Below are positions 1 to 38,229 of a DNA stretch of 64,000 nucleotides, one piece after another. This DNA comes from Motacilla alba alba (lineage: Eukaryota > Chordata > Aves > Passeriformes > Motacillidae). Position numbers and translations under genes: made by a program. The stretch lies in NCBI RefSeq assembly GCF_015832195.1, contig NC_052027.1, positions 14,442,149-14,506,148 of the forward strand. Reading direction: 5' to 3'. Within the stretch, counting starts at the first letter, position 1; each line of letters starts with the position of its first letter. The notes beneath the pieces are model-generated. The model had not been told where the DNA came from. It did no database searches and was given only the letters and a program-made list of their open reading frames with translations.

Positions 1-369
1 AAGAACTTGGGTAATTTTAATAACCCTGCAACAAAGACATTTACACGAAGTAACACAACAAAGCTAACCCACCAGAATAATCCAGAAGATCAAAAGCCAC
101 CCTTATCTGCACCACAGCTGCTTTTCAGAACATCCCAGCTACTTTCTCCCTCGTCATCCCAAATTAGTTATTTTAACTGTGTAGTCTTGGGCTTACAATC
201 CCAAGCACAATCATTACTGTAAAAGGCAGTGTTAGAAGGGAACACATGCTGGGGAATAATTTAACTTTATGGGGAGCAGGCTTGATTCAGGCGTCACTTT
301 CTTTAAAACACTGAGGAAGTGGTGAGCTCTAGAGCAGCACAAACTCTCGCACAGAAACATGTGTTGTAC

Positions 370-3300
370 CTTGTTGCAGAGCCAGTCCTCAAATTTAGGC
401 CTTGGGTTGCTGTAGTGCATTGCAATCTGCTTCCCTTGGATCACCAGCTTTTTCTGCAAAAAAAGTGGTTTCAATTATTCCTGTATCAAGACACACATGT
501 CCATTTTCCCATGGCAGAGCACCCTTCGGAGGAATCAGTGCTCCTGAATTAAATGGACAACATATGGGGAGGATGTGGAGGACAACCACCGCCACCTACA
601 CCCTGCCCATCCAATCCTGCAGAGAGGAGGACGAGGGCAGTAAGAGAATGGGATGTGGAGCAAAGATAAACAGAATCAGGGAGTGTAGAAAAAGCTGCCA
701 AACACTAAACGCTGACATGGAACCAGAAAGTGTCTCGAAGGAGACAGAGTCCTAATCTGTTGCATTCAGATTAACACATTTTTAGGAGTCTCTTTGCCCC
801 CACATTTCTATTCACTTCTGGCATAGCACTGAGAGGCTTTTTAAACGTGTCCTTAGGTGACTGCTTCACTTCGTCCCCTACTCCAAACACCCCAGACCTT
901 TTAACCACACTTGGATTTACTTTTTCCAAGTACACTTCAGAAGTGTCCCCTTGAAAATACAGTAATTCCTCCCAAAGGGACCCTGCTTAGACTTCTTGAA
1001 GGCTGGATTACAAGTGCCATCAACTGAAACATAACTCAAGAGTGGTTTCATTTGACTACTGCATCAGTTCAATTGGAAGCCTGCACAAGAGGTTTGTGTT
1101 CTTCATTCAGGCAAGAGTTCTCCAAAATGAGTAACTAGATTGCACGTGAAGCTTCTCCAGGGGTAGGAAAAGTTCATAATGCTTTCATCACGTCCTCTCA
1201 CTCTGACTTCAGAGGAGTTAGTAATTTACAGCTATTAAGAAGCCTTGACTGTCAGCCTCACGCTTTGCCAAGCGTGGGTATGCAGAATGACCTTTCAAAA
1301 TATGGCTATCAACATATTTTGGTCAAACAGGTGGAAGCACATGTGAGGAAGTGCGTATTAGAGGCCACACCCCAGACACTGCAATGGCAGAACCATTTTT
1401 ATGGCAGGTTGGCTTTCTGCAGAGGTACCAGTGTCAGCACCAGTGGCTTTTCTGATAACAGGGTCTGACACAGATCTAGCACGTAGCATGAATAAGGCTC
1501 TCACATTCTGCACGACTGAACAGGGCAAAGCCATTGCTCCTACCGGCAGGAGGGAGGGTTGGAGGGCCCAGCACTCACTGGATGTGCACACATAGAAACA
1601 AGGCTGCTGGCATAGTTGCAATACATCGTTCTGTCATCTAACAGTCAGCAACCCGGCTGCTGGGGACAGGCTATGTTTTCCCTACTACTAAGGTGGTTGC
1701 TTACTGGAGTGAATTTGAGTATACTTCAATAAATTATGCATCAGTACAGCTTTGTATATATTAAAAAAAATTAAATTTCTGGAAATATGCTCTGCATTAA
1801 TTTCTTGGTATTAGTCTTTCCCCTGCAGCCACCTGCCCTACTGAGCAGCATGTCAGGAAAACAGTATTTGAAAGCTGCTCTCTGGCTGGGGAACACACCC
1901 ACAGTGTGGGACATATGAAACACTATTCCAGCACAAGGCATATGACAACTTCCATCTGCTGGAACTGCCATGAATCCCATGATGGTGCCATTTCTTTATT
2001 ATAACATCAACAGAGCAGAAAACCAGTCATAATGTTGTCTTAGGACTGCTGCATCAAATATTCAGGTCCAAGAAAAAAAATTAGTGATTTGACACTTTGC
2101 TCACTTTGAGAGTATTTTTAAGTTCTGTTGTTAAAATAGCTTATGAATCTCAAAGTAGTGAAAGCAAGTGAAACTGTTTGCAGAGCCACAGGAAAATCTC
2201 ACAGGAAAACAAACCAGAGGATCCTTACTGCATTTTGGCTTCCTATCAAGTCATAGTAACAAAAAAGCCAAAATACAGAGTCTAACAGATGTGAGATCTC
2301 ACTGTCTGCCTCATTTAGTTGAAATGAATATGCTTTTTTCTCTAGAAGAGCCAGTTCCCCCTCTTTAACTGGGGTAATAGATTATTGCCAAGAACTGACA
2401 CTTCTCTTTCAGGGTTAATACCAATGTAACACAGAGATGTGGTGCTTTCTCTGACAACAGAGAAAGAAACATCAAGTGGAAATAAGCTAGGACTTTTTAA
2501 AGACTACTAGCCAAATCTTCATAAGACCAATTAAACAGCAACCAAGTCATTTAATACAATGGCACCTTTCACCAAAGTAGAACTTTCTCTCCTAATTTTC
2601 TTACATGTTATAAATTTTAATATATACAAAGCTTTTATTCTTTAAATCACTGTTATGGAACAAACCACTCCTTCCACCTCTATTTTTTCCTTTTTTTTTT
2701 TTTTTCTTGTTAAACTGTACAGACTTGTTCCATTTTCAGGAATATCTAGACTTGGTGAGTGAAGCAACCTGATTGGCTTCCATCCAGCTGGTAGCATCTT
2801 GAAAGTGATAAAACTCCACGAAGGCGAAACCACGGCTTACACCTAGAGACAGCATTCAGATATAGACGGGATACTTGTGTTAGTCAGTTCCTTTAAAACA
2901 GGTGAATCTCTCTCCAACTGCTTCATTACTTCATGACAAAGCAGCTTTACAAATGCGACGTCAACTGCTGGGATCTGCTCGTTATTTTGCCATGGCAAGG
3001 AACCAAGCTGCCTTAACTGGCTACATTTCACTCGATCTGAATCCACGTTTAAGGGTAACCATGCAACAGACTACATACTATTAAATGGGTTTACACTATT
3101 ATTACTTACCAATACCTGTTAACAAAACCCCCTGTAGACAGACTTCTTTTAACATGTTGACCAGCTATCTAAGTCTTCCAAAAAGCCACATTCCTTAGCC
3201 ATGGCAAACCTTTTTTTTTTATTGCATGTGCTTGCAGTTTGGGGACAATTCTGGATACTCTTTTGGGCTGGGGAAGAGGAAGGTGATGTCAAAAACTGGA

Positions 3301-6131
3301 TTAAGAGCTCTCACCTGTCTTTCTTTTCATCAGCCTCACGTCTGCAGGCTGAGGACCTTCAAAGGATTCAATAAGCTCACGAATCTGCAGGAGATTTTGA
3401 TCGAACAGTTAAAATTTTCATAGCTTGCCAGACAGAAGTCACAGAAACCACCTACCTTGCAGCACCATGAAAGAGATACACAAAACAATGTTTTCAACAC
3501 CATCTCAAAGACAAAGAAAACATTTACTGAGAACCCAACGGGACTGATGAGCATCAAAGTCCATATAATCTTTTGCTACAGGCTAAATCAACTGTAATCC
3601 TCACTCAGGACACTGAATCATCCACAACCTGATTCCCTACGATTGCGTGTTCTCAGATTAATTGGTCAGTATTTGGCAAAGACTGTGCATGATCCCAAGA
3701 TTTAAAAAAGAACACGGCTGGTAACCCTCTCCCTGCCTGTCTAGAAACCCTTTGCTCCTAGCAATGAAAAACAAGAAGCCTGCACTGCAAGGCTCCATGA
3801 TGAATGTATTCTTACACCTCACGCTAAAGATCTCAGTTCTTCTGGTGTAACAAAGCTGCTGCGGCACAGGCAGCCTCAGCCTCAGTGCAGAGGCATGGAG
3901 GAAAAACAAACGCTAACAAATTCTTTAATTCCAGAGCAGAAGACAAGGTTTTTCAGCAGCTTCCACAGAATTCAAAGTACATTACATGCAACAGGGCTGC
4001 TCAGCAGAATCAAAACTTATCTAAAGCTCCCCATTTATATGCTGAATAGAAACAATATCAGATATGCAAGTGATTTTTTCTAATGAAAAATATAGGGGAA
4101 AAAAAGAGAATTGTGTACACAACCAGGAGTAATGTTAACAAAAGAACTCAACTCTACATTCCAAGATGCATTGTCTACACTCTGAGTCCAGATTTAAACA
4201 TTCCTATAAATTATGCTACAGTTACTGCACAGCTGTAGAGCTACACCAGTATCTCAGAAACAAGAACCGTTCTACAGCATTCTGTGTAATGTCTGACTGG
4301 GCTGTCTCATTTGTATGCAGGAACCTATACTTATTTCAAACACTCATGAAAATGTTAGATCAGTATTCGGTGATTAGGAACCCTCAATATCAGGAGGGTA
4401 ACAAGCAATCGACGAAAAAGCAAAAGAAAAAATCTCCATTGTAGGAATGGTGCAAATGTATTCTCTGTGTTAGCAATTAAGGCATATAGACATCGAAGGC
4501 AGAGGCGGAGTCTTGACTGAAAACAAACTGGGATAGCTCAGCTTTTACCTCTCAAATAACACTTTTGTGCTTATAGCTTGGTAACCAAAATAACCCACGA
4601 AGGAAAAAAAACTCTAAAAAGTTCCCACAGATAAGAAAACCTTAAAGCTTTAACATCTTTTTAATGAACAAGTCAGACAAGCAAGCACCGAGCTCATCAG
4701 TACTTGCTCCCTCAGCTCGGCAGCAGCCATTTTGACTCCCACAGCTGTGCCCACACAAAGCAGCTTTGTGCAGGGCTGTGCTCGGCTAAGGAGCTCGGTG
4801 ACTGTGTGTGACCCCATCGGTCACAAGTTCTGGCCCCGATAAAGACCAGAAAAACTGGTGATTGCCACCTCTTTGTCTCTGTCCCCCTCCCCCCTCCCTG
4901 CAGTGGGGCGAAACAGCAAAAAAAATCCGCCTCTTCGCTCTCACACAGAAAAGCAGCAAAGAGCAGACAGTTTAAAATCCACTCTTCGGGAAAGCATCCG
5001 TGAAAAAAGGAGCATTCACAGCTCGTTCTATCTGAAAAGGACTGATTAACATTGAACTGACCTCTATAATTTAACACTGGGAGTTTAAACGCTTTCAGGA
5101 CTCAAAATGGCAGCGCGACAGCGCTCGAGAGGGGCCACCATGATGCAGCGCTCAACAAAATGGCAGCAACCGCTCCGGCACGGCCCTGCCCGGGGGCAAG
5201 GCAGGCACAGCCCTGCCCGGCTACTCACATCGTTCTCCGTGACCGTGATGGGGAGCCCACGCAACATGATGGTCTTGCTTTCTTTTTCATCGTTAATATC
5301 GTTCCTGTAGTCGTGCTCGCCGTAGTCGCCATCGGAATGGTATCCGTCCTCCGATTTGTCGCTGTTCCTGCGCTCCCGCTCCCTCTGGAAGCCAGCGCCC
5401 AGGGTTAGCCACCGCGACTCCCGGCAGCGTGTCCCCCCAGCGCCACACGGGCCCCGCCCGCCGGCCCGGGGCTGCTCCCCCCGGCCCCGGGCAGCGCTCC
5501 GGCACCGAACCCGCTCCCGGCGCCCTCCGCCCCGCAGCGCCGGCCCCGGCCCCCGGCCCCGCTCACCTCGGGGCTATCGTAATCGCGGCTGTCGTAGTCT
5601 CTATCATAGTCTCGGCTATCGCGACTGTCGTAGTCTCGGCAGTCCCGACTATCGTAGTCCCGGCAATCGTAGTCTCGGCTGTCCCGGCTGTCGTAGTCGC
5701 GGCAGTCTCGGCTATCGTAGTCTCGGCAATCGCGGCTGTCGCGACTGTCGTAGTCTCGGCAGACCCGGCTGTCTCGACTGTCGTAGTCCCGACTGTCGTA
5801 GTCGCGGCAGTCTCGGCTATCGCGGCTGTCGTAGTCTCGGCTATCGTAGTCGCGGCTGTCGTAGTCGCGATAGTCATCATAGCGGTCACCGCGGCGCTCC
5901 TCACTGGACCTCTTGTAGTCATCCCTCCGCCGGCTGCGGGACTCCCGCTCGTCGCGGTCCTCCCTCTCCACGATGGAGCCGTAGCGGCCGCTCCGCTCCG
6001 TCCTGCTCACCCTGCGGGGCACAGCGGGCCGAGCTCAGAGCGTGAAGCGCCCGTCGCGACCCCCACCACTGCCCGCCTCCTCCCGTCTCCCCTCGCCCTC
6101 CCGCCGCCGCTCACCGCTTGTCCGAGCCCAT
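370..6131 (-). CDS. RBM5: RBM5, RNA-binding motif protein 5, copy 1 (5' part; runs off window start)
   Basis: RBM5 is a nuclear spliceosome-associated regulator of alternative splicing. Coding exons read on the minus strand are 6131-6115 (ATG, MGSDK...), 6011-5567, 5384-5229, 3384-3315, 2842-2769 and 453-370; all are in frame with GT-AG borders. Together they encode 282 residues. The N-terminal RS/RE-rich start is followed by a greatly expanded RDYDS-type repeat (about residues 52-152) and an acidic linker. RRM1 follows, with RNP2 around IMLRGLP and RNP1 RGFAFVEF. The last exon begins the RanBP2-type zinc finger region (DWLCNK). Downstream exons lie left of base 1. RBM6 and RBM10 are relatives, but the start and the [10 protein letters not shown] linker fit RBM5. 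Introns are otherwise featureless to my eye. Confidence 0.93.
5573..5875 (-). repeat. Coding tandem repeat in RBM5 exon 2 ([16 protein letters not shown] units), copy 1
   Basis: About 300 bases of a degenerate 15-base unit encode repeated Arg-Asp-Tyr-Asp-Ser with RDS and RDC variants. The tract continues the single RDYDS that human RBM5 has just before its SPE sequence, as I recall it. Its length is a multiple of three and the frame stays open into the following exon. The predicted protein is identical in the second copy (23232-23534). The opposite strand also stays open because the repeat unit lacks antisense stops. Confidence 0.9.
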
Positions 6132-6345
6132 GCCGCCGCCCAGGATCCGCAGGCACCCGGCACAGCACTATCCGGCACCACACGCCAAGCACACCCGCAC
6201 AGTCCCTCTCGCTGCCTCGCCACAAAATGGCGCCTAAGGGACCGCCCGTCTTCTACCCAGCAGCCACCTCGCGCCCCGACTGGAAGCTTCCAATCGGGGC
6301 GCAGGCGCAGCGGCCGCGCGGCACGCCGGGAAATGTAGTTGGGGG
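6132..6345 (-). promoter_or_regulatory. RBM5 CpG-island promoter / 5'UTR, copy 1
   Basis: This GC- and CpG-rich stretch lies immediately upstream of the RBM5 start codon. It carries a YY1-like AAAATGGCGCC at 6224-6234, a CCAAT at 6290-6294 and an NRF1-like GCGCAGGCGCAG at 6299-6310. At 6328-6340, GGGAAATGTAGTT is the reverse complement of the ZNF143/THAP11-type AACTACATTTCCC element. There is no TATA box. The motifs fit a housekeeping promoter; the exact start site is inferred. Confidence 0.65.
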
Positions 6346-8630
6346 GCTGCCGCCATTAAGGGCCCTGCGGTCCGGTCTCCCCCACTCATGGCACCGGGAT
6401 GCTCAGAGCCCCGTCCAGCTCGACTCTGGACACTGCCCGGAATGGGGCAGCCGCAACTGCTCTGTGAAACAGGTCCCCGTGCCTCGCCACAGTGCATTCC
6501 TTCCTCATGTCCAATCGAAAACTGTTGTCAGTTTAGAGCAGTTATCCCTTGTGCTGTGACTATGTGCCCCATCCAAAGCCCCGCTCCCGCCGACTTGGAG
6601 CCCTTTAGGAAGGGGCTCTTAAGTTCCCTCTGGAGTCATCTCTTCTGCACAGTGAAGAACCCCAGCTCCTACCCCCTGTCAATAGCTAAATAGTTGTCAT
6701 GGCCCACCGTCCCTTTGGGGAGCACCTGCCTCAGTTCGAAGTGAAAAATTTCTGCCCCAAGGGAGGATGTGGGACTGTACCCCCACTGCCCTGCACTGCT
6801 CGGGCTCATACGGCCAAGCCCAGGAGCTGCAAAGCCAGCAAGACTTTGGCCCCAGCAACGTTGTCCTCTCCATATTTCCAGCACAGAGGGCCCCTCTGCC
6901 CCCTTCCCACGAAACCAGCAGCATCCCTGCTCCTGCACAGCTGCTCCTGCCTGGACCTGCAGCCTTCAGAGCATGGCAGGCACTGGCAGGAGCAGGCAGA
7001 GGCTGCTGAGAACCCTTCAAACCACATTCAAATGCAGTCAGGTCCTCCTCACTGCCTGACCCTTAGCCCTGAGAGTTTGCTTGGGACCCAATAAAAGGTA
7101 TTTAACATTCAAATGGTGCCATCTTTGTTTTTTTTCAAGACAGTTTTGTTAGTCTCAGAGCATGGCGGAGTGGGGCTGGCTGGAGGGCAGGGTGGGTCAG
7201 GGTCACCTCATCCAGGGACTGCTTGGCAGAGCAGGCAGTACAGAACAGTCAGGCAGTACAGACAGTACAGACAGGCAGTACATGCAGTGCAGGCAGACAG
7301 ACAGGCAGTGCAGGCAGTACAGAGCAGTCAGGCAGTGGAGACAGACAGGACAGGCAGTACAGACAGTACAGACAGGCAGTACATGCAGTGCAGGCAGACA
7401 GACAGGCAGTGCAGGCAGTACAGAGCAGTCAGGCAGTGGAGACAGACAGGACAGGCAGTACAGACAGGCAGCACAGACAGACAGGAGTACAGACAGGCAG
7501 TGCAGTCAGTACAAACAGACAGACAGACATGCAGTACAGGGAGTGCAGGCTGACAGGCAGTGCAGACAGACAGGAGTACAGACAGACAGACAAACAGACA
7601 GTATAGGCAGTGCAGACTGACAGGCAGTGCAGACAGACAGTGCAGTCAGTACATACAGACAGACAGACATGCAGTACAGGCAGAGCAGACAGGCAATGGA
7701 GTCAATACAGACAGACACGCAAACAGACAGTATAGGCAGTACAGACAGACAGGCAGTACAGGCAGTACAGGCTGAGAGGTAGTGCAATCAGTACAGACAG
7801 ACAGACAGACAGGCAGTGGAGTCAGTACAGACAGACAGACAGACATGCAGTACAGGCAGACGGGCAGCGGAGTCGAGCAGCAGGCAGGTCTGTCACAGGG
7901 TGCATGCGTCACAGCTGTTTCCGCTGTCATCTGTGGGTGTTGCAAAGGAAAAAGTTTCTCCTCTGGGCAGGCTGCCTGGCCAGCCTGGAGGCTCTCGGCA
8001 GCTCCTCGGCAGGCAGCCCTGGGCAGCGGGAGCAGGTAGGACACGGCTGCTGTCTGTGCCTCTGTCCCCACTGCTGTCCTCTTCAGCTGGGACTGGCCGG
8101 GGACACAGCAGACAGGGGCTGTCCGAGCCCCCTCCTGCCCAAATCAAAGCATTCCACTGGTCTTGAGAGCGGCTGGGGGGATGGCATTTCAAGTCTGGTG
8201 GCGTGTCGTTGCATTGTTTCCCTTCTTGCATGTCCCAGGGGGCACAGAGCTGGTCGAGCCTTGGGGACACACTCCTGAGGATTGGGGGTTCCTGGTGAGG
8301 GGAGGTGGGGGCACAGGTCCCCTGTGCTCCCCCTTGGCTCTGTGTCACTGGGCTCTTTCCACTTTGGGGTCCCTCAAGGGCTGAAGGGTGCTGAGAGGCT
8401 CTTTCACCCACCCTGAACACAGGACAGGATTGAGACAGTTTGTGGGCAGAGGTCCCATCCCCTCCTCCAGCCCTGCTGTGGGCTGAAGCAAAGGGAAAGC
8501 AAGGCGCAGCCCCCTGGACTTTCCCGGAAGGGCAGCATGGCATCTCTCACCTCTCCCTCTGCTGTCTCCAAGGATTTTTCTGGGGGATTAAGGCTGCTCT
8601 GACCCGGTGACAGCGGGGAGTGGCTCAGTC
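6346..8630. other. Intergenic region between RBM5 and PARP3, copy 1
   Basis: This is the interval between the divergent RBM5 and PARP3 genes. It contains the minisatellite listed separately and, just before PARP3, pyrimidine-rich sequence that could hold a non-coding first exon of PARP3. I find no coding exon. Bases 8325-8415 are a 91-base segment missing from copy 2; CCCTG occurs at both deletion borders. Confidence 0.6.
7233..7872. repeat. CAGTACAG/ACAGACAGG minisatellite (VNTR), copy 1, about 640 bp
   Basis: The tract is an array of GCAGTACAG, ACAG and GACAGACAGG units with a higher-order 18-60 base pattern, for example two long near-identical stretches starting near 7259 and 7361. The sequence is purine-rich on the plus strand. 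It has long open frames in several phases that merely reflect the repeat (Gln/Thr/Asp/Arg-rich). The homologous array in copy 2 is about 140 bases shorter. Confidence 0.92.
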
Positions 8631-11600
8631 ATGGCTTCCAAGCGCCAAGCTTCTTCCTCGAAGCAGCCAGACAGCAGGGAAAAGAAACCCAAAGGGGAAG
8701 AGGAGGACGACACCTGGAGCTCCACCTTGGCAACCCTGAAAACTGCTCCCAAGGAGAAGCTGCCCGCCACAATTGATGGATTGTGCCCCCTGAGCACAGC
8801 ACTGGGTGCCCGGGTGAGAGCAGGGCTGAGCTACTCAGGGGGGCAGGGGTGGGAGGGTGGGGGAGTCTCAGACCAGCCCCTGCCCTGTTGACACAGGGTC
8901 AGCCCCAATTCTCCTTGCAGACCCAGTGTGTTCCCACTGGGACATTTCTGCACCCTCTCCTTCCCCAAACGCTCCCCGGTGCCAGCCCAGGCCACGTCAC
9001 TCGCTATAGGTCTATGAGGACTATGACTGCACCCTGAACCAGACCAACATCAGTGCCAACAACAACAAGTTCTACATCATCCAGCTCCTGGAGCACGATG
9101 GTGCCTATAGTGTCTGGAGCCGCTGGGGCCGCGTGGTGAGTCCACCTGGCCATCGCTCATCCCCTGCACCTCAGCTGTCCTCACCCTTGCCTTCAGAGCC
9201 CCAAAAATCCAGGGTGAACCTGGTGGTCCCTGGTCCCAAAGCAAGCACCCAAGTGTCCTGCTGTAGCACTTTAATGGCGGGGCTTCAGGAACTTTTCCCC
9301 ATACAACATAGTCAGCCTGTCTGGGGTATAGTCACCTGTCCCTGCAGTGAATGTGAGGGTGACAGCCCAGCAAGGGGTCCTGGGGTGTCTTCCTGAGCTG
9401 GTGGCTCAGCACATTCCTGCCACTGCCGAACAGCCTTGCTATCCCAGCCCCCCTTGTTCCTGCCTGCCTGCTTCCACTGGCATGGGGCTGGTGGAGCAGG
9501 GATGCAGGGGAGGTCCTGACCGCTGCTGTCCACTGCCAGGGAGAGGCAGGCCAGTCCAAGCTCATGCCCTGTGCCTCCCTGGAAGCTGCCAAGAAGGACT
9601 TCGAGAAGAAGTTTCGAGAGAAGACCAAGAACAGCTGGGCAACAAGGGAGAACTTTGTTGCCCACCCAGGGAAGTACACACTCATTGAGGTGCAGCCAGG
9701 GGCTGGGCAGGAGATGGAGGCTACACTCAGGGTGAGTACTGAGAGCTTGTCACCATGATGGTGTGGTCCTCATTGCCCTCCTGCCCCAGGACGTCCAACA
9801 GGGTCAGCAGGATGGGATGGGTTTTGAGGGGGGTGTGGGTGCTTGCTGAAACAGCTTGCTGGCAGAGATTTGGGGCTAATGGGTTAAAACAGACTGGGAG
9901 GGCATCCTGGATGAGAAACATGGCCTTGTGGGTGGCATCGGCCATGGAAAGTGGAGGCAACACCTGCCCGTTGCTCTGCTGCCCCAGGACCAGGCTCTCC
10001 TCACAGAGGTGGGCAGCACTGGTGCTGTGCTCCCACAGCCTCTTGCAGGCCCACAGCTGATGGGGTGTGTCTGCAGGTGGATGCCGTGGATGGGGACAAG
10101 GTCTGCAAGCAGCGGGTGCTGCCCTGTACCTTGGACAGAGCCACACAGGAGCTGGTGTCCCTCATCTTCAGCAGTGACATGTTCCGGGATGCCATGCAGA
10201 CCATGAATATCGGTAGGAGGTGGTGGGTTGATGGGTGGCATGGGCTCGGTCTGGGGGTGCAGGTGGGGAGGTGAACGGAGCAGAGGTGCTGATGGATTTT
10301 AGAGCACCCCCTCTGATATCCTGGCTCCTGGTGGGACTGTGGACAGCCCGTGCTGGGTGCCCACACTTGCCCATGGTGATACTGGGGGTTCTTGGAAGTG
10401 GCTGCAGGGCGAGTGGGGTGGATGGGTTCCCCTTGTCCTCCCCTGTAGACGTGAAGAAGATGCCTCTGGGGAAGCTGAGCAAGCAGCAGATCGCACGGGG
10501 CTTTGAGGCACTGGAGGAGCTGGAGGCAGCGCTGAAGGAGCAGCCCCCCCAGGCCACTCGCCTGGAGGAACTCTCCTCACGCTTCTACACCATCATCCCA
10601 CACAACTTTGGACGGGCACGGCCACCCACCATCAACTCCCCTGACCTGCTGCGTGCCAAGAAGGACATGCTGTTGGTGAGATGCCAGAGCACGAACTGTG
10701 TGACATCCCTTCCTGGTGGGGCAGGAGCTGCTGGCAGGAGGCTGGACTTGCCCTGGTCCCCCAGCACAGTGCCAAGCACTGGTGCTGAGGATGTCCCTGC
10801 TCTGTCCCTGCCAGGTGCTGGCTGACATTGAGGTTGCACAGAGCCTGCAGGCACAGAAAGAGAAGGAGGAGGCGGAGAAAGAAGTTGCCCATCCACTGGA
10901 TCAGGATTATGCCCTGCTGTGCTGCCAGCTCTCCCTGCTTGACCCAGCTTCCCGGGAATACCAGGTGCTGCTTGTGCCACAGTGTCCCATAATGGGAAAC
11001 AATTATGTCAGGTCTGTGGGCACCCCAAAGGTTCCTACTGTCCCAGGGGGACCGTGGGCATTGATGAGATGGCTGCCTGGAGTGACACAGCTTTTTTGCC
11101 TCCCCCTTGGCAGCTGATCCAGACCTATGTGACGCAGACTGGGCACAAGCTCCACATCCTCAACATCTGGCAGGTGGCCCGAGATGGTGAGGTGAGGAGG
11201 AGGTGATTCTCCCCGTGTCACAGTGGGGAAGCCATGGTTGCACCCCAGGGTTGCTTTAGGGCTTCTCCACCCAGGAGGGGATTCAGCCCAGCTGGCCAGG
11301 GCTGAACAGGCACCCAGTCTCCTGCCCCTCCAGCTGGGCACTGGGGCTGGGCTGGGGAGGTGGGTGGCACTCCTCCACCCCTGGGCACCCATGAGTCCCT
11401 CTGTGGACAGCCTTTAGCTCTGCATCTCTCCAGGATGAGCGTTTCAAGGCCCATGACCTCCTGGAGCACCGGCGCCTGCTGTGGCACGGCACCAACGTGG
11501 CAGTGGTGGCGGCCATCCTGAAGAGCGGGCTGCGCATCATGCCCCACTCCGGCGGGCGCGTGGGCAAGGGCATCTACTTTGCCTCAGAGAACAGCAAATC

Positions 11601-12260
11601 AGCCTGCTATGGTGAGGGCCCTGGGATGGGATGGGCTGGGCTGCTTGTGATGCCCACAGGGTCTGTGTGAGCCTGGCCTCCCTTGCATACCCTCTGCCAG
11701 GCAGCTGTGGGCTTGCCAAGCCCCTTCCCTGCCATGGCAATTGGTCCCTGTGGTCCAGCGTGGCCTGGGCACAACCAGATGGGAGTACCAGGGATGGTAC
11801 TGTCATTCCCATCCCTTTCTCCCATGGCAGTGGGCCGTACATCTAAGAATATTGGCATCATGTTCCTGACGGAGGTGGCCCTGGGCAAGCCCTACCGCAT
11901 CACCTGCGATGACCCCACGCTGTGTCAGCCCCCTGCTGGCTATGACAGTGTCCTGGCCTGTGGCCAGACAGAGCCGGGTGAGCTGCGGGCAGGAGGGCCG
12001 TGGCAGTCTGGGGCTGTGGTGCCCACAGGGCAGGGGGGAGAGAGGCCAGATCTCATGTTTCATGTGGTGCTGGGATGTCTCCTGGCCCAGATCCAGCACA
12101 GGATGAAGAGGTGCTGCTGGATGGCAAGAAGGTGCTGGTGTGCCAGGGCAAGCCCATTCCCATGCCTGCCTACAAGGACTCCTCCTTCAGCCAGAGCGAG
12201 TACCTCATCTACAAGGAAAGCCAGTGCCGGATCCGCTACCTTGTCCAGCTCCGCTTCTGA
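8631..12260 (+). CDS. PARP3: PARP3, mono-ADP-ribosyltransferase, copy 1 (528 aa)
   Basis: PARP3 is a nuclear, DNA-strand-break-activated mono-ADP-ribosyltransferase acting in double-strand-break repair. Exons are 8631-8813, 9010-9135, 9540-9731, 10077-10212, 10449-10675, 10815-10964, 11114-11191, 11434-11611, 11831-11977 and 12091-12260. A short Lys/Ser/Glu-rich N terminus precedes a WGR domain (about residues 62-170, containing SRWGRV). The helical regulatory domain (VKKMPLGKLSKQQ) and the ART catalytic domain follow. The H-Y-E triad is visible: His382 (LLWHGTN), Tyr412 (GKGIYFA) and Glu509 (SQSEYLIY). The length matches human PARP3 (533-540 aa). Differences from copy 2 include EEAE versus seven Glu in exon 6 and three missense changes in exon 7. 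The exon 6 donor (CAG|GTGCTG) is weak. Confidence 0.96.
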
Positions 12261-12407
12261 GGGTGCCTGGGAGTACCACGGCCCTTGCCCAGCACCAGGA
12301 GGTGACACCCATCAGCCCGGAGCACAGTGATCTGGACTCCCTGGCCACCCCACCAGGGGCTTGGCAAGGGACAGGCTGGCATGGGGACTGAGCTTGCTTT
12401 GACTGTG

Positions 12408-12413
12408 AATAAA
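12408..12413 (+). terminator. PARP3 poly(A) signal AATAAA, copy 1
   Basis: A canonical AATAAA lies about 150 bases after the PARP3 stop codon and is followed by GT-rich sequence, giving a compact 3'UTR. Confidence 0.85.
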
Positions 12414-14992: not shown

Positions 14993-15074
14993 GAAGGAGT
15001 CTCTGTCCCACTGTGCTGGGCAGGAGACCTGCCAGGGACACATCAGACCTGCTCGGACCCAATCTCTTGGATTT

Positions 15075-16374: not shown

Positions 16375-16680
16375 CAAGGAATCATTCAAGTTGGAAAGGA
16401 CCTTAAAAACCATTGAGTCCAATGGTTAACCCAGCATTGTCAAGTCCACCACTATGCCACATCCCTCAGTGTCACACCCAGGAACAGAGATTCACTGCCC
16501 TTCACAGACCCCATGCCAGCAAATGACCTCCCTGAAACTTAGGAGACTTTTCTTGTACCTCTGTAATTTCCTGTGTTCCAATTTATGGCTGCTCCCTATT
16601 GTCCTCTCCTTATGTATCCTTGAGAATATGTTTCTGCTGCCCTTAGACCCTCCCACTGGATGCTGCTAAGAAGAGCAGCA
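16375..16680 (-). mobile_element. CR1-type LINE fragment (3' end)
   Basis: The plus strand shows the familiar reverse complement of a CR1 3' end: GAATCATTCAAGTTGGAAAG, then CCAATGGTTAACCCAGCATTG, CAAGTCCACCACTATGCCAC and further degenerate sequence. The element is therefore on the minus strand and 5'-truncated; weaker similarity may continue to about 16760. CR1 is the dominant LINE of birds and other sauropsids, which supports the taxonomic guess. It lies in an intron of RBM5 copy 2; the corresponding part of copy 1 would be outside the window. Confidence 0.8.
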
Positions 16681-17045
16681 TCTGCCTCCTCCTCTCTTCT
16701 CAAGGTGGAAGAAGCCTAACTCAATGCACCTGTTCCCACACTGCACGCCCCAGATCTTACAATCTGCCAACAAAGTATGAACCCGCACCAGTACTTCTGC
16801 AATCAAAGCACGAAGCTAGGCTGCAATCCAGAACAGAACTCTGCTACCAAAATAGATTTCCCAAGTGCTCCCAACATCCCACCACCCTTCAAACTGCAGC
16901 TACATATTATCAGCTTTGACACACTGCAGCCATTAACAGTCCCTGAAGGGGGACAGTCCTTCAGACAGCTCAGGGCTCTATATGCTGCGAGGGAGAGAAG
17001 GAGTTCACCAGCTGTTTCTCTCCAGAACACCAGTAAAGTCCTCAC

Positions 17046-23000: not shown

Positions 23001-23790
23001 ATCCGTCCTCCGATTTGTCGCTGTTCCTGCGCTCCCGCTCCCTCTGGAAGCCAGCGCCCAGGGTTAGCCACCGCGACTCCCGGCAGCGTGTCCCCCCAGC
23101 GCCACACGGGCCCCGCCCGCCGGCCCGGGGCTGCTCCCCCCGGCCCCGGGCAGCGCTCCGGCACCGAACCCGCTCCCAGCGCCCTCCGCCCCGCAGCGCC
23201 GGCCCCGGCCCCCGGCCCCGCTCACCTCAGGGCTATCGTAATCGCGGCTGTCGTAGTCTCTATCATAGTCTCGGCTATCGCGACTGTCGTAGTCTCGGCA
23301 GTCCCGACTATCGTAGTCCCGGCAATCGTAGTCTCGGCTGTCCCGGCTGTCGTAGTCGCGGCAGTCTCGGCTATCGTAGTCTCGGCAATCGCGGCTGTCG
23401 CGACTGTCGTAGTCTCGGCAGACCCGGCTGTCTCGACTGTCGTAGTCCCGACTGTCGTAGTCGCGGCAGTCTCGGCTATCGCGGCTGTCGTAGTCTCGGC
23501 TATCGTAGTCGCGGCTGTCGTAGTCGCGATAGTCATCATAGCGGTCACCGCGGCGCTCCTCACTGGACCTCTTGTAGTCATCCCTACGCCGGCTGCGGGA
23601 CTCCCGCTCGTCGCGGTCCTCCCTCTCCACGATGGAGCCGTAGCGGCCGCTCCGCTCCGTCCTGCTCACCCTGCGGGGCACAGCGGGCCGAGCTCAGAGC
23701 GTGAAGCGCCCGTCGCGACCCCCACCACTGCCCGCCTCCTCCCGTCTCCCCTCGCCCTCCCGCCGCCGCTCACCGCTTGTCCGAGCCCAT
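17046..23790 (-). CDS. RBM5: RBM5, RNA-binding motif protein 5, copy 2 (first 378 residues; 3' exons lost in gap)
   Basis: Coding exons on the minus strand are 23790-23774, 23670-23226, 23043-22888, 21044-20975, 20502-20429, 18114-18031, 17636-17576, 17418-17353 and 17206-17046. After the expanded RDYDS region come RRM1 and the RanBP2-type zinc finger (DWLCNK|CCLYNF...CFRCGADKF). A short linker and most of RRM2 follow (RNP2 IILRNIA, RNP1 RGFAFVQL). The next expected exon, continuing RRM2, is not in 16075-17045, so it and the OCRE and G-patch parts fall in the gap or beyond. The part shared with copy 1 encodes the same protein. Intron 9 contains the CR1 fragment. Confidence 0.94.
23232..23534 (-). 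repeat. Coding tandem repeat in RBM5 exon 2 (RDYDS units), copy 2
   Basis: The array has the same length and encodes the same protein as at 5573-5875. Its stability between copies contrasts with the non-coding minisatellite 1.5 kb away, which changed by about 140 bases. Confidence 0.9.
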
Positions 23791-24004
23791 GCCGCCGCCC
23801 AGGATCCGCAGGCACCCGGCACAGCACTATCCGGCACCACACGCCAAGCACACCCGCACAATCCCTCTCGCTGCCTCGCCACAAAATGGCGCCTAAGGGA
23901 CCGCCCGTCTTCTACCCAGCAGCCACCTCGCGCCCCGACTGGAAGCTTCCAATCGGGGCGCAGGCGCAGCGGCCGCGCGGCACGCTGGGAAATGTAGTTG
24001 GGGG
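23791..24004 (-). promoter_or_regulatory. RBM5 CpG-island promoter / 5'UTR, copy 2
   Basis: The motif set matches copy 1: YY1-like, CCAAT, NRF1-like and the ZNF143-type element at about 23987-23999. A C-to-T change sits just outside the ZNF143 core (GCTGGGAAATG instead of GCCGGGAAATG). Confidence 0.62.
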
Positions 24005-24884
24005 GCTGCCGCCATTAAGGGCCCTGCGGTCCGGTCTCCCCCACTCATGGCACCGGGATGCTCAGAGCCCCGTCCAGCTCGACTCTGGACACTGCCCGGA
24101 ATGGGGCAGCCGCAACTGCTCTGTGAAACAGGTCCCCGTGCCTCGCCACAGTGCATTCCTTCCTCATGTCCAATCGAAAACTGTTGTCAGTTTAGAGCAG
24201 TTATCCCTTGTGCTGTGACTATGTGCCCCATCCAAAGCCCCGCTCCCGCCGACTTGGAGCCCTTTAGGAAGGGGCTCTTAAGTTCCCTCTGGAGTCATCT
24301 CTTCTGCACAGTGAAGAACCCCAGCTCCTACCCCCTGTCAATAGCTAAATAGTTGTCATGGCCCACCGTCCCTTTGGGGAGCACCTGCCTCAGTTCAAAG
24401 TGAAAAATTTCTGCCCCAAGGGAGGATGTGGGACTGTACCCCCACTGCCCTGCACTGCTCGGGCTCATACGGCCAAGCCCAGGAGCTGCAAAGCCAGCAA
24501 GACTTTGGCCCCAGCAACGTTGTCCTCTTCATATTTCCAGGACAAAGGGCCCCTCTTCCCATGAAACCAGCAGCATCCCTGCTCCTGCACAGCTGCTCCT
24601 GCCTGGACCTGCAGCCTTCGAGCATGGCAGGCGCTGGCAGGAGCAGGCAGAGGCTGCTGAGAACCCTTCAAACCACATTCAAATGCAGTCAGGTCCTCCT
24701 CACTGCCTGACCCTTAGCCCTGAGAGTTTGCTTGGGACCCAGGAAAAGGTATTTAACATTCAAAATGGTGCCATCTTTATTTTTTTTCAAGACAGTTTTG
24801 TTAGTCTCAGAGCATGGCGGAGTGGGGCTGGCTGGAGGGCAGGGTGGGTCAGGGTCACCTCATCCAGGGACTGCTTGGCAGAGC

Positions 24885-25384
24885 AGGCAGTACAGAACAG
24901 TCAGGCAGTACAGACAGACAGACAGTACGGACAGGCAGTGCAGGCAGTACAGAACAGTCAGGCAGTACAGACAGACAGACAGTACAGACAGGCAGTGCAG
25001 GCAGTACAGAGCAGTCAGGCAGTGAAGACAGACAGGACAGGCAGTGCAGACAGTGCAGTCAGTACAGACAGACAGACAGACATGCAGTACAGACAGAGCA
25101 GACAGGCAGTGGAGTAAGTGCAGACAGACAGACAGGCAGTACAGGCAGAGCAGACAGGCAGTATAGGCAGTACAGGCAATGCAGACAGACAGACAGCCAG
25201 TACAGGCAGTACAGGCTGAGAGGCAGTGCAGTCAGTACAGACAGACAGACAGACATGCAGTACAGGCAGACAGGCAGTGGAGTCAGAACAGACAGACAGA
25301 TAGACATGCAGTACAGGCTGAGAGGCAGTGCAGTCAGTACAGACAGACAGACAGACATGCAGTACAGGCAGACAGGCAGTGGAG
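24885..25384. repeat. CAGTACAG/ACAGACAGG minisatellite (VNTR), copy 2, about 500 bp
   Basis: The unit composition and flanks match 7233-7872, but the internal order differs and the array is about 140 bases shorter. It sits between the divergent RBM5 and PARP3 genes, about 0.7 kb before the PARP3 start. The rest of the intergenic region (24005-26051) shows no coding exon. Confidence 0.92.
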
Positions 25385-26051
25385 TCGAGCAGCAGGCAGG
25401 TCTGTCACAGGGTGCATGCGTCACAGCTGTTTCCGCTGTCATCTGTGGGTGTTGCAAAGGAAAAAGTTTCTCCTCTGGGCAGGCTGCCTGGCCAGCCTGG
25501 AGGCTCTCGGCAGCTCCTCGGCAGGCAGCCCTGGGCAGCGGGAGCAGGTAGGACACGGCTGCTGTCTGTGCCTCTGTCCCCACTGCTGTCCTCTTCAGCT
25601 GGGACTGGCCGGGGACACAGCAGACAGGGGCTGTCCGAGCCCCCTCCTGCCCAAATCAAAGCATTCCACTGGTCTTGAGAGCGGCTGGGGGGATGGCATT
25701 TCGTGTCTGGTAGCGTGTCGTTGCATTGTTTCCCTTCTTGCATGTCCCAGGGGGCACAGAGCTGGTCGAGCCTTGGGGACACACTCCTGAGGATTGGGGG
25801 TTCCTGGTGAGGGGAGGTGGGGGCACAGGTCCCCTGAACACAGGACAGGATTGAGACAGTTTGTGGGCAGAGGTCCCATCCCCTCCTCCAGCCCTGCTGT
25901 GGGCTGAAGCAAAGGGAAAGCAAGGCGCAGCCCCCTGGACTTTCCCGGAAGGGCAGCATGGCATCTCTCACCTCTCCCTCTGCTGTCTCCAAGGATTTTT
26001 CTGGGGGATTAAGGCTGCTCTGACCCGGTGACAGCGGGGAGTGGCTCAGTC

Positions 26052-29000
26052 ATGGCTTCCAAGCGCCAAGCTTCTTCCTCGAAGCAGCCAGACAGCAGGG
26101 AAAAGAAACCCAAAGGGGAAGAGGAGGACGACACCTGGAGCTCCACCTTGGCAACCCTGAAAACTGCTCCCAAGGAGAAGCTGCCCGCCACAATTGATGG
26201 ACTGTGCCCCCTGAGCACAGCACTGGGTGCCCGGGTGAGAGCAGGGCTGAGCTACTCAGGGGGGCAGGGGTGGGAGGGTGGGGGAGTCTCAGACCAGTCC
26301 CTGCCCTGTTGACACAGGGTCAGCCCCAATTCTCCTTGCAGACCCAGTGTGTTCCCACTGGGACATTTCTGCACCCTCTCCTTCCCCAAACGCTCCCCGG
26401 TGCCAGCCCAGGCCACGTCACTCGCTATAGGTCTATGAGGACTATGACTGCACCCTGAACCAGACCAACATCAGTGCCAACAACAACAAGTTCTACATCA
26501 TCCAGCTCCTGGAGCACGATGGTGCCTATAGTGTCTGGAGCCGCTGGGGCCGCGTGGTGAGTCCACCTGGCCATCGCTCATCCCCTGCACCTCAGCTGTC
26601 CTCACCCTTGCCTTCAGAGCCCCAAAAATCCAGGGTGAACCTGGTGGTCCCTGGTCCCAAAGCAAGCACCCAAGTGTCCTGCTGTAGCACTTTAATGGCA
26701 GGGCTTCAGGAACTTTTCCCCACACAACATAGTCAGCCTGTCTGGGGTATAGTCACCTGTCCCTGCAGTGAATGTGAGGGTGACAGCCCAGCAAGGGGTC
26801 CTGGGGTGTCTTCCTGAGCTGGTGGCTCAGCACATTCCTGCCACTGCCGAACAGCCTTGCTATCCCAGCCCCCCTTGTTCCTGCCTGCCTGCTTCCACTG
26901 GCATGGGGCTGGTGGAGCAGGGATGCAGGGGAGGTCCTGACCGCTGCTGTCCACTGCCAGGGAGAGGCAGGCCAGTCCAAGCTCATGCCCTGTGCCTCCC
27001 TGGAAGCTGCCAAGAAGGACTTCGAGAAGAAGTTTCGAGAGAAGACCAAGAACAGCTGGGCAACAAGGGAGAACTTTGTTGCCCACCCAGGGAAGTACAC
27101 ACTCATTGAGGTGCAGCCAGGGGCTGGGCAGGAGATGGAGGCTACACTCAGGGTGAGTACTGAGAGCTTGTCACCATGATGGTGTGGTCCTCATTGCACT
27201 CCTGCCCCAGGACATCCAACAGGGTCAGCAGGATGGGATGGGTTTTGAGGGGGGTGTGGGTGCTTGCTGAAACAGCTTGCTGGCAGAGATTTGGGGCTAA
27301 TGGGTTAAAACAGACTGGGAGGGCATCCTGGATGAGAAACATGGCCTTGTGGGTGGCATCGGCCATGGAAAGTGGAGGCAACACCTGCCCGTTGCTCTGC
27401 TGCCCCAGGACCAGGCTCTCCTCACAGAGGTGGGCAGCACTGGTGCTGTGCTCCCACAGCCTCTTGCAGGCCCACAGCTGATGGGGTGTGTCTGCAGGTG
27501 GATGCCGTGGATGGGGACAAGGTCTGCAAGCAGCGGGTGCTGCCCTGTACCTTGGACAGAGCCACACAGGAGCTGGTGTCCCTCATCTTCAGCAGTGACA
27601 TGTTCCGGGATGCCATGCAGACCATGAATATCGGTAGGAGGTGGTGGGTTGATGGGTGGCTTGGGCTCGGTCTGGGGGTGCAGGTGGGGAGGTGAACGGA
27701 GCAGAGGTGCTGATGGATTTTAGAGCACCCCCTCTGATATCCTGGCTCCTGGTGGGACTGTGGACAGCCCGTGCTGGGTGCCCACACTTGCCCATGGTGA
27801 TACTGGGGGTTCTTGGAAGTGGCTGCAGGGCGAGTGGGGTGGATGGGTTCCCCTTGTCCTCCCCTGTAGACGTGAAGAAGATGCCTCTGGGGAAGCTGAG
27901 CAAGCAGCAGATCGCACGGGGCTTTGAGGCACTGGAGGAGCTGGAGGCAGCGCTGAAGGAGCAGCCCCCCCAGGCCACTCGCCTGGAGGAACTCTCCTCA
28001 CGCTTCTACACCATCATCCCACACAACTTTGGACGGGCACGGCCACCCACCATCAACTCCCCTGACCTGCTGCGTGCCAAGAAGGACATGCTGTTGGTGA
28101 GATGCCAGAGCACGAACTGTGTGACATCCCTTCCTGGTGGGGCAGGAGCTGCTGGCAGGAGGCTGGACTTGCCCTGGTCCCCCAGCACAGTGCCAAGCAC
28201 TGGTGCTGAGGATGTCCCTGCTCTGTCCCTGCCAGGTGCTGGCTGACATTGAGGTTGCACAGAGCCTGCAGGCACAGAAAGAGAAGGAGGAGGAGGAGGA
28301 GGAGGAGAAAGAAGTTGCCCATCCACTGGATCAGGATTATGCCCTGCTGTGCTGCCAGCTCTCCCTGCTTGACCCAGCTTCCCGGGAATACCAGGTGCTG
28401 CTTGTGCCACAGTGTCCCATAATGGGAAACAATTATGTCAGGTCTGTGGGCACCCCAAAGGTTCCTACTCTCCCAGGGGGACCGTGGGCATTGCTGAGAT
28501 GGCTGCCTGGGGTGACACAGCTTTTTTGCCTCCCCCTTGGCAGCTGATCCAGACCTATGTGATGCAGACTGGGAACAAACCCCACATCCTCAACATCTGG
28601 CAGGTGGCCCGAGATGGTGAGGTGAGGAGGAGGTGATTCTCCCCGTGTCACAGTGGGGAAGCCATGGTTGCACCCCAGGGTTGCTTTAGGGCTTCTCCAC
28701 CCAGGAGGGGATTCAGCCCAGCTGGCCAAGGCTGAACAGGCACCCAGTCTCCTGCCCCTCCAGCTGGGCACTGGGGCTGGGCTGGGGAGGTGGGTGGCAC
28801 TCCTCCACCCCTGGGCACCCATGAGTCCCTCTGTGGACAGCCTTTAGCTCTGCATCTCTCCAGGATGAGCGCTTCAAGGCCCATGACCTCCTGGAGCACC
28901 GGCGCCTGCTGTGGCACGGCACCAACGTGGCAGTGGTGGCGGCCATCCTGAAGAGCGGGCTGCGCATCATGCCCCACTCCGGCGGGCGCGTGGGCAAGGG

Positions 29001-29690
29001 CATCTACTTTGCCTCAGAGAACAGCAAATCAGCCTGCTATGGTGAGGGCCCTGGGATGGGATGGGCTGGGCTGCTTGTGATGCCCACAGGGTCTGTGTGA
29101 GCCTGGCCTCCCTTGCATACCCTCTGCCAGGCAGCTGTGGGCTTGCCAAGCCCCTTCCCTGCCATGGCAATTGGTCCCTGTGGTCCAGCGTGGCCTGGGC
29201 ACAACCAGATGGGAGTACCAGGGATGGTACTGTCATTCCCATCCCTTTCTCCCATGGCAGTGGGCCGTACATCTAAGAATATTGGCATCATGTTCCTGAC
29301 GGAGGTGGCCCTGGGCAAGCCCTACCGCATCACCTGCGATGACCCCACGCTGTGTCAGCCCCCTGCTGGCTATGACAGTGTCCTGGCCTGTGGCCAGACA
29401 GAGCCGGGTGAGCTGCGGGCAGGAGGGCCGTGGCAGTCTGGGGCTGTGGTGCCCACAGGGCAGGGGGGAGAGAGGCCAGATCTCATGTTTCATGTGGTGC
29501 TGGGATATCTCCTGGCCCAGATCCAGCACAGGATGAAGAGGTGCTGCTGGATGGCAAGAAGGTGCTGGTGTGCCAGGGCAAGCCCATTCCCATGCCTGCC
29601 TACAAGGACTCCTCCTTCAGCCAGAGTGAGTACCTCATCTACAAGGAAAGCCAGTGCCGGATCCGCTACCTTGTCCAGCTCCGCTTCTGA
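26052..29690 (+). CDS. PARP3: PARP3, mono-ADP-ribosyltransferase, copy 2 (531 aa)
   Basis: Exons are 26052-26234, 26431-26556, 26961-27152, 27498-27633, 27870-28096, 28236-28394, 28544-28621, 28864-29041, 29261-29407 and 29521-29690. Domain order and the H-Y-E catalytic residues are as in copy 1. Exon 6 is 9 bases longer because of a GAG repeat, giving a run of seven Glu where copy 1 has EEAE. Exon 7 reads YVMQTGNKPH against YVTQTGHKLH in copy 1. The Glu run lies between the regulatory and catalytic parts, where length change is probably tolerated. This copy is contiguous with the unique downstream genes and is the better reference model. Confidence 0.96.
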
Positions 29691-29837
29691 GGGTGCCTGG
29701 GAGCACCACGGCCCTTGCCCAGCACCAGGAGGTGACACCCATCAGCCCGGAGCACAGTGATCTGGACTCCCTGGCCATCCCACCAGGGGCTTGGCAAGGG
29801 ACAGGCTGGCATGGGGACTGAGCTTGCTTTGACTGTG

Positions 29838-29843
29838 AATAAA
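29838..29843 (+). terminator. PARP3 poly(A) signal AATAAA, copy 2
   Basis: This is the counterpart of the signal at 12408-12413, about 150 bases after the stop codon. Confidence 0.85.
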
Positions 29844-31192
29844 AGCACTGTGCCTTGCACTGGGTGGTGCTCTCGCTCTCCTGCCCAGCAAGGCGGGTGT
29901 GCTGTAGGGAAGGGTGTCAGTGGGACCCTGAAGGGATGGCATGGGTGGCTTTTGAGGGGCTGAAGCCTTCAGATGAAAGCTGGTGTCTTTGAGAGCCAGC
30001 TGCTCTCATCAGCTTAGCAAGGCACACGGCTCATGCCCACCCTGTGGTATCAGAGCTACAGAGGGTGAGAAAGATCTGATGCCCTGCCTGGGCATAGAGG
30101 AATTCATCCATCCATCCTGAGGGCGAGTGACTGCCCTCCCTCTAGTGCCATGCCTCATGCCATGTCTGCTGTCCTGCCCCCAGCCTGGCACCCATGCCAA
30201 GCCCTTCTTTGTGCTCACGTGTGTCCCTTGAGCACATATCCGGGTGCTCAGGCTGCCAGGGAAGCGCAACTCCCAGCTGTGTTACCCTGATGCCCCGGGT
30301 ATCGGTCACCCTGATACCCTGTGCCAGCGGAGATGATTTGCTCCAGACCTGCCTGTAGCTCCGTCCCTCGAGCCCAAGGAACTTGAGGGCTGAGGTGTTC
30401 CTGTGGAAGGACCAGGCCTGGTGCAGTGGGTGGCCATTCTGGGGGGGCATAGGGCTCAGGAACCCCGATCCCCCCTTCCTGAGCCCCTGCCGGCTGCTAG
30501 GACCCAGCAGCTGTCCCCGTGGGACTGCCACGGGTGCAGGCAGTGCAGGCAGTGCCGGGAGTGACAGCTGGTGCCATCCGCAGCTGGCGGGCTGCAGGCA
30601 AACAGGATGACGAGCGGGTGACGGGAGCGGGGACGGGCGAGCGTGGCCTCACACGGGGCCAGCAGCCCCATTCTGCTGCGGCAGCAACACCAGCAAGCAG
30701 GACCCCAGTGAGGAGAGGAGCATCACTCATCTCCCCAGGAGCAAAGGTGCGCTGAATCCCACCCACCCTGGGGTCCCCTGTGGCCACAGCAAGAGGGTTG
30801 GGACAGGCAAGTTGTGCTGTCCCATCTCAGGACATACTGGTGCCATTGGAGGGGGGATGGGGTGTCAGCCTGGCATGGGTGCCCACAGGACCTAGCTATG
30901 CTTATCCCTGGCCAGGTTTGGGACAGCCTGGGTGGCAGCTCTAGGAGAGCCAGAGTGATATGACTTCACTGGCTACCTCTCCCTCCTCAGCACCTTGGAA
31001 GTATGCTGGTTGTCTCTGCGTTTCTCTGTGGCTCTTCTCCATTTTGGTTCGTTCCCTTCACACCTGGCTCCTGATCCCAACAGGCAAGGAGAAGGTAGCA
31101 GCCATGGTTGTGGTGGGGTTACCCTCTCTGGGACACAGGAGAAGAGCCCTTGCTGCCCGGGCACCAGAGCTGCTGGCTTAGTCCTGGAGGGG
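29844..31192. other. Intergenic PARP3-GPR62 region, copy 2
   Basis: No coding exon is seen. A possible 5'UTR acceptor for GPR62 (CTCCTCAG) lies near 30990. The frame upstream of the GPR62 start is open back to 30995 in this copy. It is not open in copy 1, because one G is missing here, so I do not treat it as coding. Confidence 0.5.
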
Positions 31193-32422
31193 ATGCCGAG
31201 CTGGACGGGGTCAAACACCACGGACAGCCTAGAGCTGCTCTCCATCCCCGAGCACTCCATTGGCCAGGAGGTGGTGGGCCTCTTCTGCATGATCCTGCTC
31301 ACCCTCACCGCCCTGGTGGCCAACATCGTGGTGATGGTCACCATCCTCAAAACACCCCTTTTCAGGAAGTTCATCTTTGTGTGCCACCTTTGTGTGGTCA
31401 ATCTCCTCTCAGCCATTTTCCTCATGCCCCTGGGGATCATCTCCAGCTCCTCCTGTTTCAACTGGGTTATCTACAGCATTGCTGAGTGCAAGGCCGTGAT
31501 ATTCCTGAACATCTGCTTCATCAGTGCCTCCATTCTCACCATCTGTATCATCAGCGTGGAGCGGTACTACTACATCGTGCACCCCTTGAGGTATGAGGTC
31601 AAGATGACCATCAGGCTGGCGGTGGCTGGAGTGGTTTTCATTTGGCTCAAGTCTGTTCTCATCACTGTCTTGGCACTAGTGGCATGGCCTCATGGCAACG
31701 GGGCCACCAGTGCCAGCCGCTGCACAGTCTACTGGAGCCCCGGGGCCCACAAGAAGGTTTTCGTGATCCTCTTCAGCATCACCTGCTTTATTCTGCCCAC
31801 CATCATTATCCTCGCCGTCTACTCCAGCATCTACCGCGTGGCCCGGACTGCGTCCCTGCAGCAGGCACCCGTGCCAGCACAGGCAGTTGCACGCAGACAC
31901 CGCTGTGACTCCATCGCCAGCCAAGTGACCATCCTCACTGCCAGGATCCTGATGCTGCCCAGGCTGATCCCAGATCGCCTTCTAGGAAGCAACAAGGCCA
32001 TCCTCACCTTGGTCCTCATTGTGGGACAATTCTTGTGCTGCTGGCTGCCTTTCTTTGCTTTCCACTTGCACTCCTCTGTCACTGCTGGCACTGTGGGTGG
32101 TGGGCACGGGGAGATGGCGGTCACCTGGATTGCCTACTCCTCCTTTGCTGTTAACCCTTTCTTCTATGGGTTGCTGAACCGCCAAATCCGTGAGGAGCTG
32201 GCCCGGCTCCGGCGCAGCTGTCTTAACCATCCACTTGGTCAGGAGCTCTGTCTTTCCATCTCAGAGGCTTCTGTTCAGGAAAACTTCTTGCAGTTCCTCC
32301 AGAGAGCAACTTGCACACTGGAGACCCACACCAGCTGCATCAGCCCCAGCCCCAGGAACAGGCTGGACCAGACCACAACCGGCTTCCCCACCCCAGGCCA
32401 AGTTCCTGAAGAGGGCAGCTGA
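31193..32422 (+). CDS. GPR62: GPR62, orphan class A GPCR, copy 2 (409 aa)
   Basis: Same single-exon receptor as at 13763-14992, with ERY, CWLP and NPFFY motifs intact and one amino acid difference (VARRHRC here). Start MPSWTGSN is preferred over the longer open frame from 30995. The extra 66 residues there are not preserved in the other copy and contain no receptor feature. It lies between PARP3 and PCBP4, tail-to-tail with PCBP4. Confidence 0.88.
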   Translation: MPSWTGSNTTDSLELLSIPEHSIGQEVVGLFCMILLTLTALVANIVVMVTILKTPLFRKFIFVCHLCVVNLLSAIFLMPLGIISSSSCFNWVIYSIAECKAVIFLNICFISASILTICIISVERYYYIVHPLRYEVKMTIRLAVAGVVFIWLKSVLITVLALVAWPHGNGATSASRCTVYWSPGAHKKVFVILFSITCFILPTIIILAVYSSIYRVARTASLQQAPVPAQAVARRHRCDSIASQVTILTARILMLPRLIPDRLLGSNKAILTLVLIVGQFLCCWLPFFAFHLHSSVTAGTVGGGHGEMAVTWIAYSSFAVNPFFYGLLNRQIREELARLRRSCLNHPLGQELCLSISEASVQENFLQFLQRATCTLETHTSCISPSPRNRLDQTTTGFPTPGQVPEEGS

Positions 32423-32504
32423 GAAGGAGTCTCTGTCCCACTGTGCTGGGCAGGAGACCTGCCAGGGACCCATCAGACCTGCTCGGACCCAATCTCTTGG
32501 ATTT

Positions 32505-34339: not shown

Positions 34340-38229
<3,890 letters not shown>

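What the first reader, a model, noticed from the sequence alone, without database searches (positions are those of the whole stretch)
1..32504. Near-identical direct duplication around a 1000-N gap: probable false (haplotype) duplication
RBM5 (5' part), the minisatellite, PARP3 and GPR62 occur twice in the same order, introns included, with few differences. Copy 1 stops at the N run at the base homologous to 32504. Copy 2 continues to both sides. A gap of exactly 1000 N is a typical placeholder. This geometry is expected when two overlapping contigs, often two haplotypes, are scaffolded without merging. If real, it would give two PARP3 and two GPR62 genes and one truncated RBM5.
Basis: partly seen in the sequence, partly recalled or inferred. 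Interest (0 to 1): 0.8.

Follow-up and report, generated by a model that had tools for sequence, protein, structure and literature searches.

The report
Allelic false duplication at assembly gap
A songbird genome assembly appears to carry the same stretch of chromosome twice on either side of a placeholder gap, most likely the mother's and father's versions laid end to end, so the second PARP3 and GPR62 genes are probably not real.

Summary
Bases 1-15074 and 17662-32504 are collinear direct copies. Between them lie exactly 1000 N (15075-16074), and the last 34 bases of copy 1 before the gap match copy 2 exactly. Outside a length-variable minisatellite they differ at 70 of 14,296 aligned bases (0.49%). 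Of these, 51 are transitions and 20 are transitions at CpG, which looks like natural variation rather than read error. A 91-bp deletion and a minisatellite length difference also separate them. PARP3 and GPR62 are open in both copies; RBM5 in copy 2 is cut off by the gap. Protein matches point to a songbird.

The geometry is that of the 'flanking contigs' form of heterotype false duplication described by the Vertebrate Genomes Project (PMC8081667, passage): one contig ends in one haplotype, the next begins in the other, and the scaffolder placed them in tandem. I prefer this at 0.93. A real tandem duplication with its junction in the gap is not excluded, because reads, a second assembly and the sequence left of the window were not available. 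Ordinary artefact, low interest.

The parts
1..15074 (+). copy 1 (right end of the left contig); starts off-window to the left
15075..16074 (.). assembly gap, exactly 1000 N
16075..32504 (+). copy 2 (left end of the right contig); 17662-32504 matches copy 1 inside the window; 16075-17661 has its presumed partner left of the window
17049..23790 (-). RBM5 5' part in copy 2, start codon to within RRM2 (matches up to residue 284 of an 824-residue RBM5 chain), then the gap; start codon placed by eye, no further exon recognised by eye in 16075-17048
370..6131 (-). RBM5 5' part in copy 1 as far as the window shows it; coordinates carried over by hand from copy 2 through the alignment, approximate
7225..7867 (+). 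non-coding minisatellite, copy 1, about 643 bp
24877..25386 (+). same minisatellite, copy 2, about 510 bp
8320..8410 (+). 91 bp present in copy 1, absent from copy 2 (at about 25831); CCCTG stands at the start of the stretch and again just after it
8631..12260 (+). PARP3, copy 1, open over 10 exons, 528 aa
26052..29690 (+). PARP3, copy 2, 531 aa
13763..14992 (+). GPR62, copy 1, 409 aa
31193..32422 (+). GPR62, copy 2, 409 aa; one amino-acid difference from copy 1 (residue 236)

Best explanation
This is a heterotype (haplotype) false duplication made by the assembler and scaffolder. The left contig runs into one haplotype and ends at 15074. The right contig begins at 16075 inside the other haplotype and runs on to the right. 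The two ends overlap by a predicted 16.4 kb but were not merged, probably because they differ by about 0.5%, a minisatellite length change and a 91-bp indel. The scaffolder then laid them head to tail with a fixed 1000-N placeholder. Shown: the two copies, the gap, the contig-end position of copy 1, and the nature of the differences. Inferred: that the copies are alleles, why they were not merged, and that the true genome has one RBM5-PARP3-GPR62 block here.
For: Copy 1 matches copy 2 up to the gap with no foreign tail. Copy 2 begins at the gap. The gap is a round 1000 N; a plant paper reports 1000-N gaps at Hi-C joins (PMC6874827, passages). Divergence is 0.49%, with 51 of 70 transitions (P 1.6e-11 against 1/3) and 20 of 70 being CpG transitions. 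Heterozygosities of 0.95, 0.34 and 0.22% are tabulated in PMC9516828 (passage; the second and third are hummingbird and platypus, the first by column order zebra finch). Coding divergence is low in RBM5 (2 of 822) and GPR62 (2 of 1230) against 58 of 10,657 non-coding. A length difference sits in a minisatellite. [quoted passage not shown] PMC9516828 lists gaps between the pair on one scaffold as a primary mark of false duplications (Discussion).
Against: No read depth, k-mer or spanning-read data. A 0.49% divergence is also what a young tandem duplication could show. PARP3 coding divergence (8 of 1587, 0.50%) is hardly lower than non-coding (0.54%), and four of its eight differing codons change the amino acid. 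Seven differences cluster in 112 bp at 11040-11151, three of them changing PARP3 exon 7, and substitution density is uneven (variance/mean 1.67, P 0.014); both fit old haplotypes but also gene conversion between paralogues. The left end of the homology could not be seen.
Confidence: 0.93

Rival explanations
1. A real, young tandem segmental duplication (fixed or segregating as a copy-number variant), whose junction happens to lie in the unassembled gap. The bird would then have two PARP3 and two GPR62 genes.
For: Both PARP3 and both GPR62 copies are intact. Each copy carries a residue uncommon in relatives: copy 1 has P at GPR62 residue 236, where 40 of 57 listed relatives have H and 7 have P; copy 2 has P at a PARP3 site where 64 of 81 have L and 1 has P. 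Two separate gene lineages would look like this.
Against: It needs the junction of the two copies to fall exactly in the gap, with no junction sequence assembled. Two alleles predict the same pattern of residues. [quoted passage not shown]
Confidence: 0.05
2. A homotype false duplication: one haplotype assembled twice at a contig boundary, the differences being sequencing errors.
For: PMC8081667 says such overlaps lie at contig boundaries, are often as long as a corrected read, and end up as tandem copies with a gap (passage); 16.4 kb is a plausible long-read length (my judgement).
Against: The differences are transition-rich and CpG-rich, include a 91-bp deletion and an in-frame 9-bp change in PARP3, and only 6 single-base indels stand beside 70 substitutions outside the minisatellite. 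That is not the usual error profile of long reads (recalled).
Confidence: 0.02

Closest known systems
Heterotype false duplication, 'flanking contigs' form (Vertebrate Genomes Project, PMC8081667 figure legend; PMC9516828)
   Same: Two near-identical tandem copies on one scaffold, separated by a gap, one contig leading in from the left and the other leading out to the right; allele-like divergence.
   Different: No difference found in what could be tested; the read-based tests that define it could not be run.
Real tandem segmental duplication / copy-number variant
   Same: Direct orientation, complete PARP3 and GPR62 genes, introns included.
   Different: No assembled junction between the copies; the gap sits where the junction should be.

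Membership tests
heterotype false duplication | assembly gap between the duplicated pair on the same scaffold | tested here: met
   1000 N at 15075-16074 directly between the copies
heterotype false duplication | copies differ as haplotypes do, not as read errors do | tested here: met
   70 of 14,296, 51 transitions, 20 CpG transitions, few single-base indels; does not separate alleles from young paralogues
heterotype false duplication | copy ends coincide with contig ends | tested here: inconclusive
   right end of copy 1 met to the base; the partner of the left end 16075 lies outside the window
heterotype false duplication | half read depth on each copy | not testable with these tools
   no reads available
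heterotype false duplication | one-copy (haploid) k-mers at differing sites; discordant read pairs | not testable with these tools
   no reads available
real tandem duplication | assembled junction joining end of copy 1 to start of copy 2 | tested here: not met
   junction replaced by N; a gap could hide it
real tandem duplication | present in another assembly or in relatives | not testable with these tools
   protein listings of other birds are clustered at 90% identity and give no gene counts per genome; own-genome search did not complete

The most novel reading that the evidence does not exclude
A recent real tandem duplication in a songbird gave two working PARP3 genes that differ by three amino acids within seven codons of exon 7, one more (A/E) beside a glutamate run, and the length of that run, and two GPR62 genes; the junction is hidden in the gap.
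Probability: 0.05. Interest if true: 0.3.

Novelty: not a real feature. Interest (0 to 1): 0.08.

Why it matters
If the reading is right and the error is left in place, gene counts for this bird would show false gains of PARP3 and GPR62 and a false truncated RBM5, and variant calling here could miss some 70 heterozygous sites. It is useful for curating one assembly, not for biology in general.

Tried and rejected
Tried: finding the rest of the scaffold through the own-genome search; it did not complete. Tried: finding the 1000-N convention in songbird assemblies. '1000 Ns' with scaffold, contigs and passerine gave 0 papers; a songbird Hi-C query gave 105 papers with 3 of 4 terms, and the ten listed showed 0 uses of 'gaps of 1000' (listing only); '1000 Ns' with chromosome, contigs and Hi-C gave 4 papers, all on plants by title (listing), of which I saw passages of one. 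A search on haplotypic duplication and contig overlaps gave a listing that I did not follow. PARP3 + GPR62 + bird gave 0 papers. Tried: naming the species. PARP3's best five rows reach 92-94% in different songbirds, so I stop at 'songbird'.

Considered and rejected: chance similarity (14.8 kb at 99.5% outside the minisatellite); a repeat family (no further copy in 32505-64000); read error as the source of the differences. Considered but not discriminating: which copy carries the rarer residues. The GPR62 count rested on a pattern that missed 17 of 57 rows and gave too few P; it is replaced by the alignment count.

Full report
Observation. The window is 64,000 bases with one N run, 15075-16074, exactly 1000. 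Self-BLAST shows two direct copies: 1-7748 with 17662-25379 and 8411-15074 with 25832-32504, joined by a minisatellite stretch. A global alignment of 1-15074 with 17662-32504 has 142 substitutions and 19 indels. Of the substitutions, 72 lie in the minisatellite stretch, where the alignment is uncertain. Outside copy-1 7225-7900 there are 70 substitutions in 14,296 aligned bases, 0.49%. The longest identical run is 1125 bases. The last 34 bases of copy 1 before the gap match 32471-32504 exactly, and copy 2 then simply goes on.

A refinement. To the left it has 16075-17661, 1587 bases with no partner in the window, but copy 1 is cut there only by the window edge. The RBM5 exons in that stretch (17636-17049) follow in order on those shared by both copies, so copy 2 is collinear with an intact gene at least to 17049. 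If the two contigs overlap, the overlap is 16,430 bases.

Genes. RBM5 lies on the minus strand; in copy 2 it covers the start to within RRM2 and matches an 824-residue 'RNA-binding protein 5' chain to its residue 284. PARP3 is on the plus strand; it is open over ten exons in both copies, 528 and 531 aa, and its best solved match is Poly(ADP-ribose) polymerase 3 (3c49, E 1.4e-141). GPR62 is a single 409-aa frame in both copies with a 7tm_1 domain (copy 2 scanned); its best database row is a Passer montanus 'probable G-protein coupled receptor' at 98%, and further rows are named G protein-coupled receptor 62. Limits of the models: PARP3 exon 1 was given a GC donor by the script, exons 4 and 5 were set by hand and are one base off (the protein is unaffected), and RBM5 junctions were chosen by a simple splice-site rule, so a residue or two may be missing.

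Nature of the differences. Of the 70 substitutions, 51 are transitions (P 1.6e-11 against 1/3) and 20 are transitions at CpG, where about 5% of copy-1 bases lie in CpG. Outside the minisatellite there are 9 indels: 6 of one base and one each of 7, 9 and 91 bp. The 91-bp one has CCCTG at its start and again just after it, a simple deletion. By region: non-coding 58 of 10,657; RBM5 coding 2 of 822; PARP3 coding 8 of 1587; GPR62 coding 2 of 1230. PARP3 differs by four amino acids (A/E, T/M, H/N, L/P) and three glutamates; GPR62 by one, P/H at 236. Seven differences fall within 112 bp at 11040-11151. Density is uneven (variance/mean 1.67, P 0.014). In the 81 PARP3 rows P0121-P0201, 64 have L and 1 has P at the L/P site, 46 have H and 10 N at the H/N site, 54 have T and 6 M at the T/M site; in the 57 GPR62 rows P0001-P0057, 40 have H (one of them the window's own entry) and 7 have P. 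So copy 1 has the commoner PARP3 residues and copy 2 the commoner GPR62 residue. This fits two alleles or two paralogues equally.

Interpretation. [quoted passage not shown] The study of false gene gains lists half depth, a gap between the pair on one scaffold, discordant or spanned read pairs and one-copy k-mers as primary marks (PMC9516828; I saw the abstract, passages, the Discussion and two other sections). Of these four only the gap can be tested here, and it is met. A 1000-N filler at Hi-C joins is on record in a plant assembly (PMC6874827, passages). I conclude that the finding is most likely an assembly artefact made of two haplotypes, confidence 0.93. A real tandem duplication with its junction in the gap (0.05) and a same-haplotype overlap with errors (0.02) remain.

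Limits. No reads, no second assembly, and no sequence left of the window could be reached; the own-genome search was asked seven times and never answered. The species is not known beyond songbird. The odds are my judgement; no call computes them.

Noticed in passing
5572-5870 and 23231-23529 (- strand): An in-frame coding minisatellite in the N-terminal exon of RBM5 encodes runs of DYDSRD/DSRDCRD. Query residue 142 pairs with residue 55 of the 824-residue RBM5 chain, so roughly 90 residues are extra before that point. The 299 bases are identical in the two copies although the non-coding minisatellite differs. Not checked in other birds.
   Followed up: partly
11040-11151 (copy 1) against copy 2: Seven substitutions in 112 bp, three of them changing PARP3 exon 7 within seven codons; copy 1 carries the residues commoner in other birds.
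   Followed up: partly
about 23790 to 26052: In copy 2 the start codons of RBM5 and PARP3 lie about 2.3 kb apart in divergent orientation; in human the two genes are far apart on 3p21 (recalled, not tested).
   Followed up: no
36819-37427 (-): A frame with KH-domain matches (KH_1 49.5 bits against a cut-off of 21.5), probably PCBP4 (gene name recalled).
   Followed up: no
60025-63019 (+): Frames that look to me like a class 3 semaphorin (name recalled). Pfam does not confirm it: the frame at 60025 matched nothing, and the one at 62165 had only sub-cut-off matches, DUF2656 best and a V-set Ig next.
   Followed up: no
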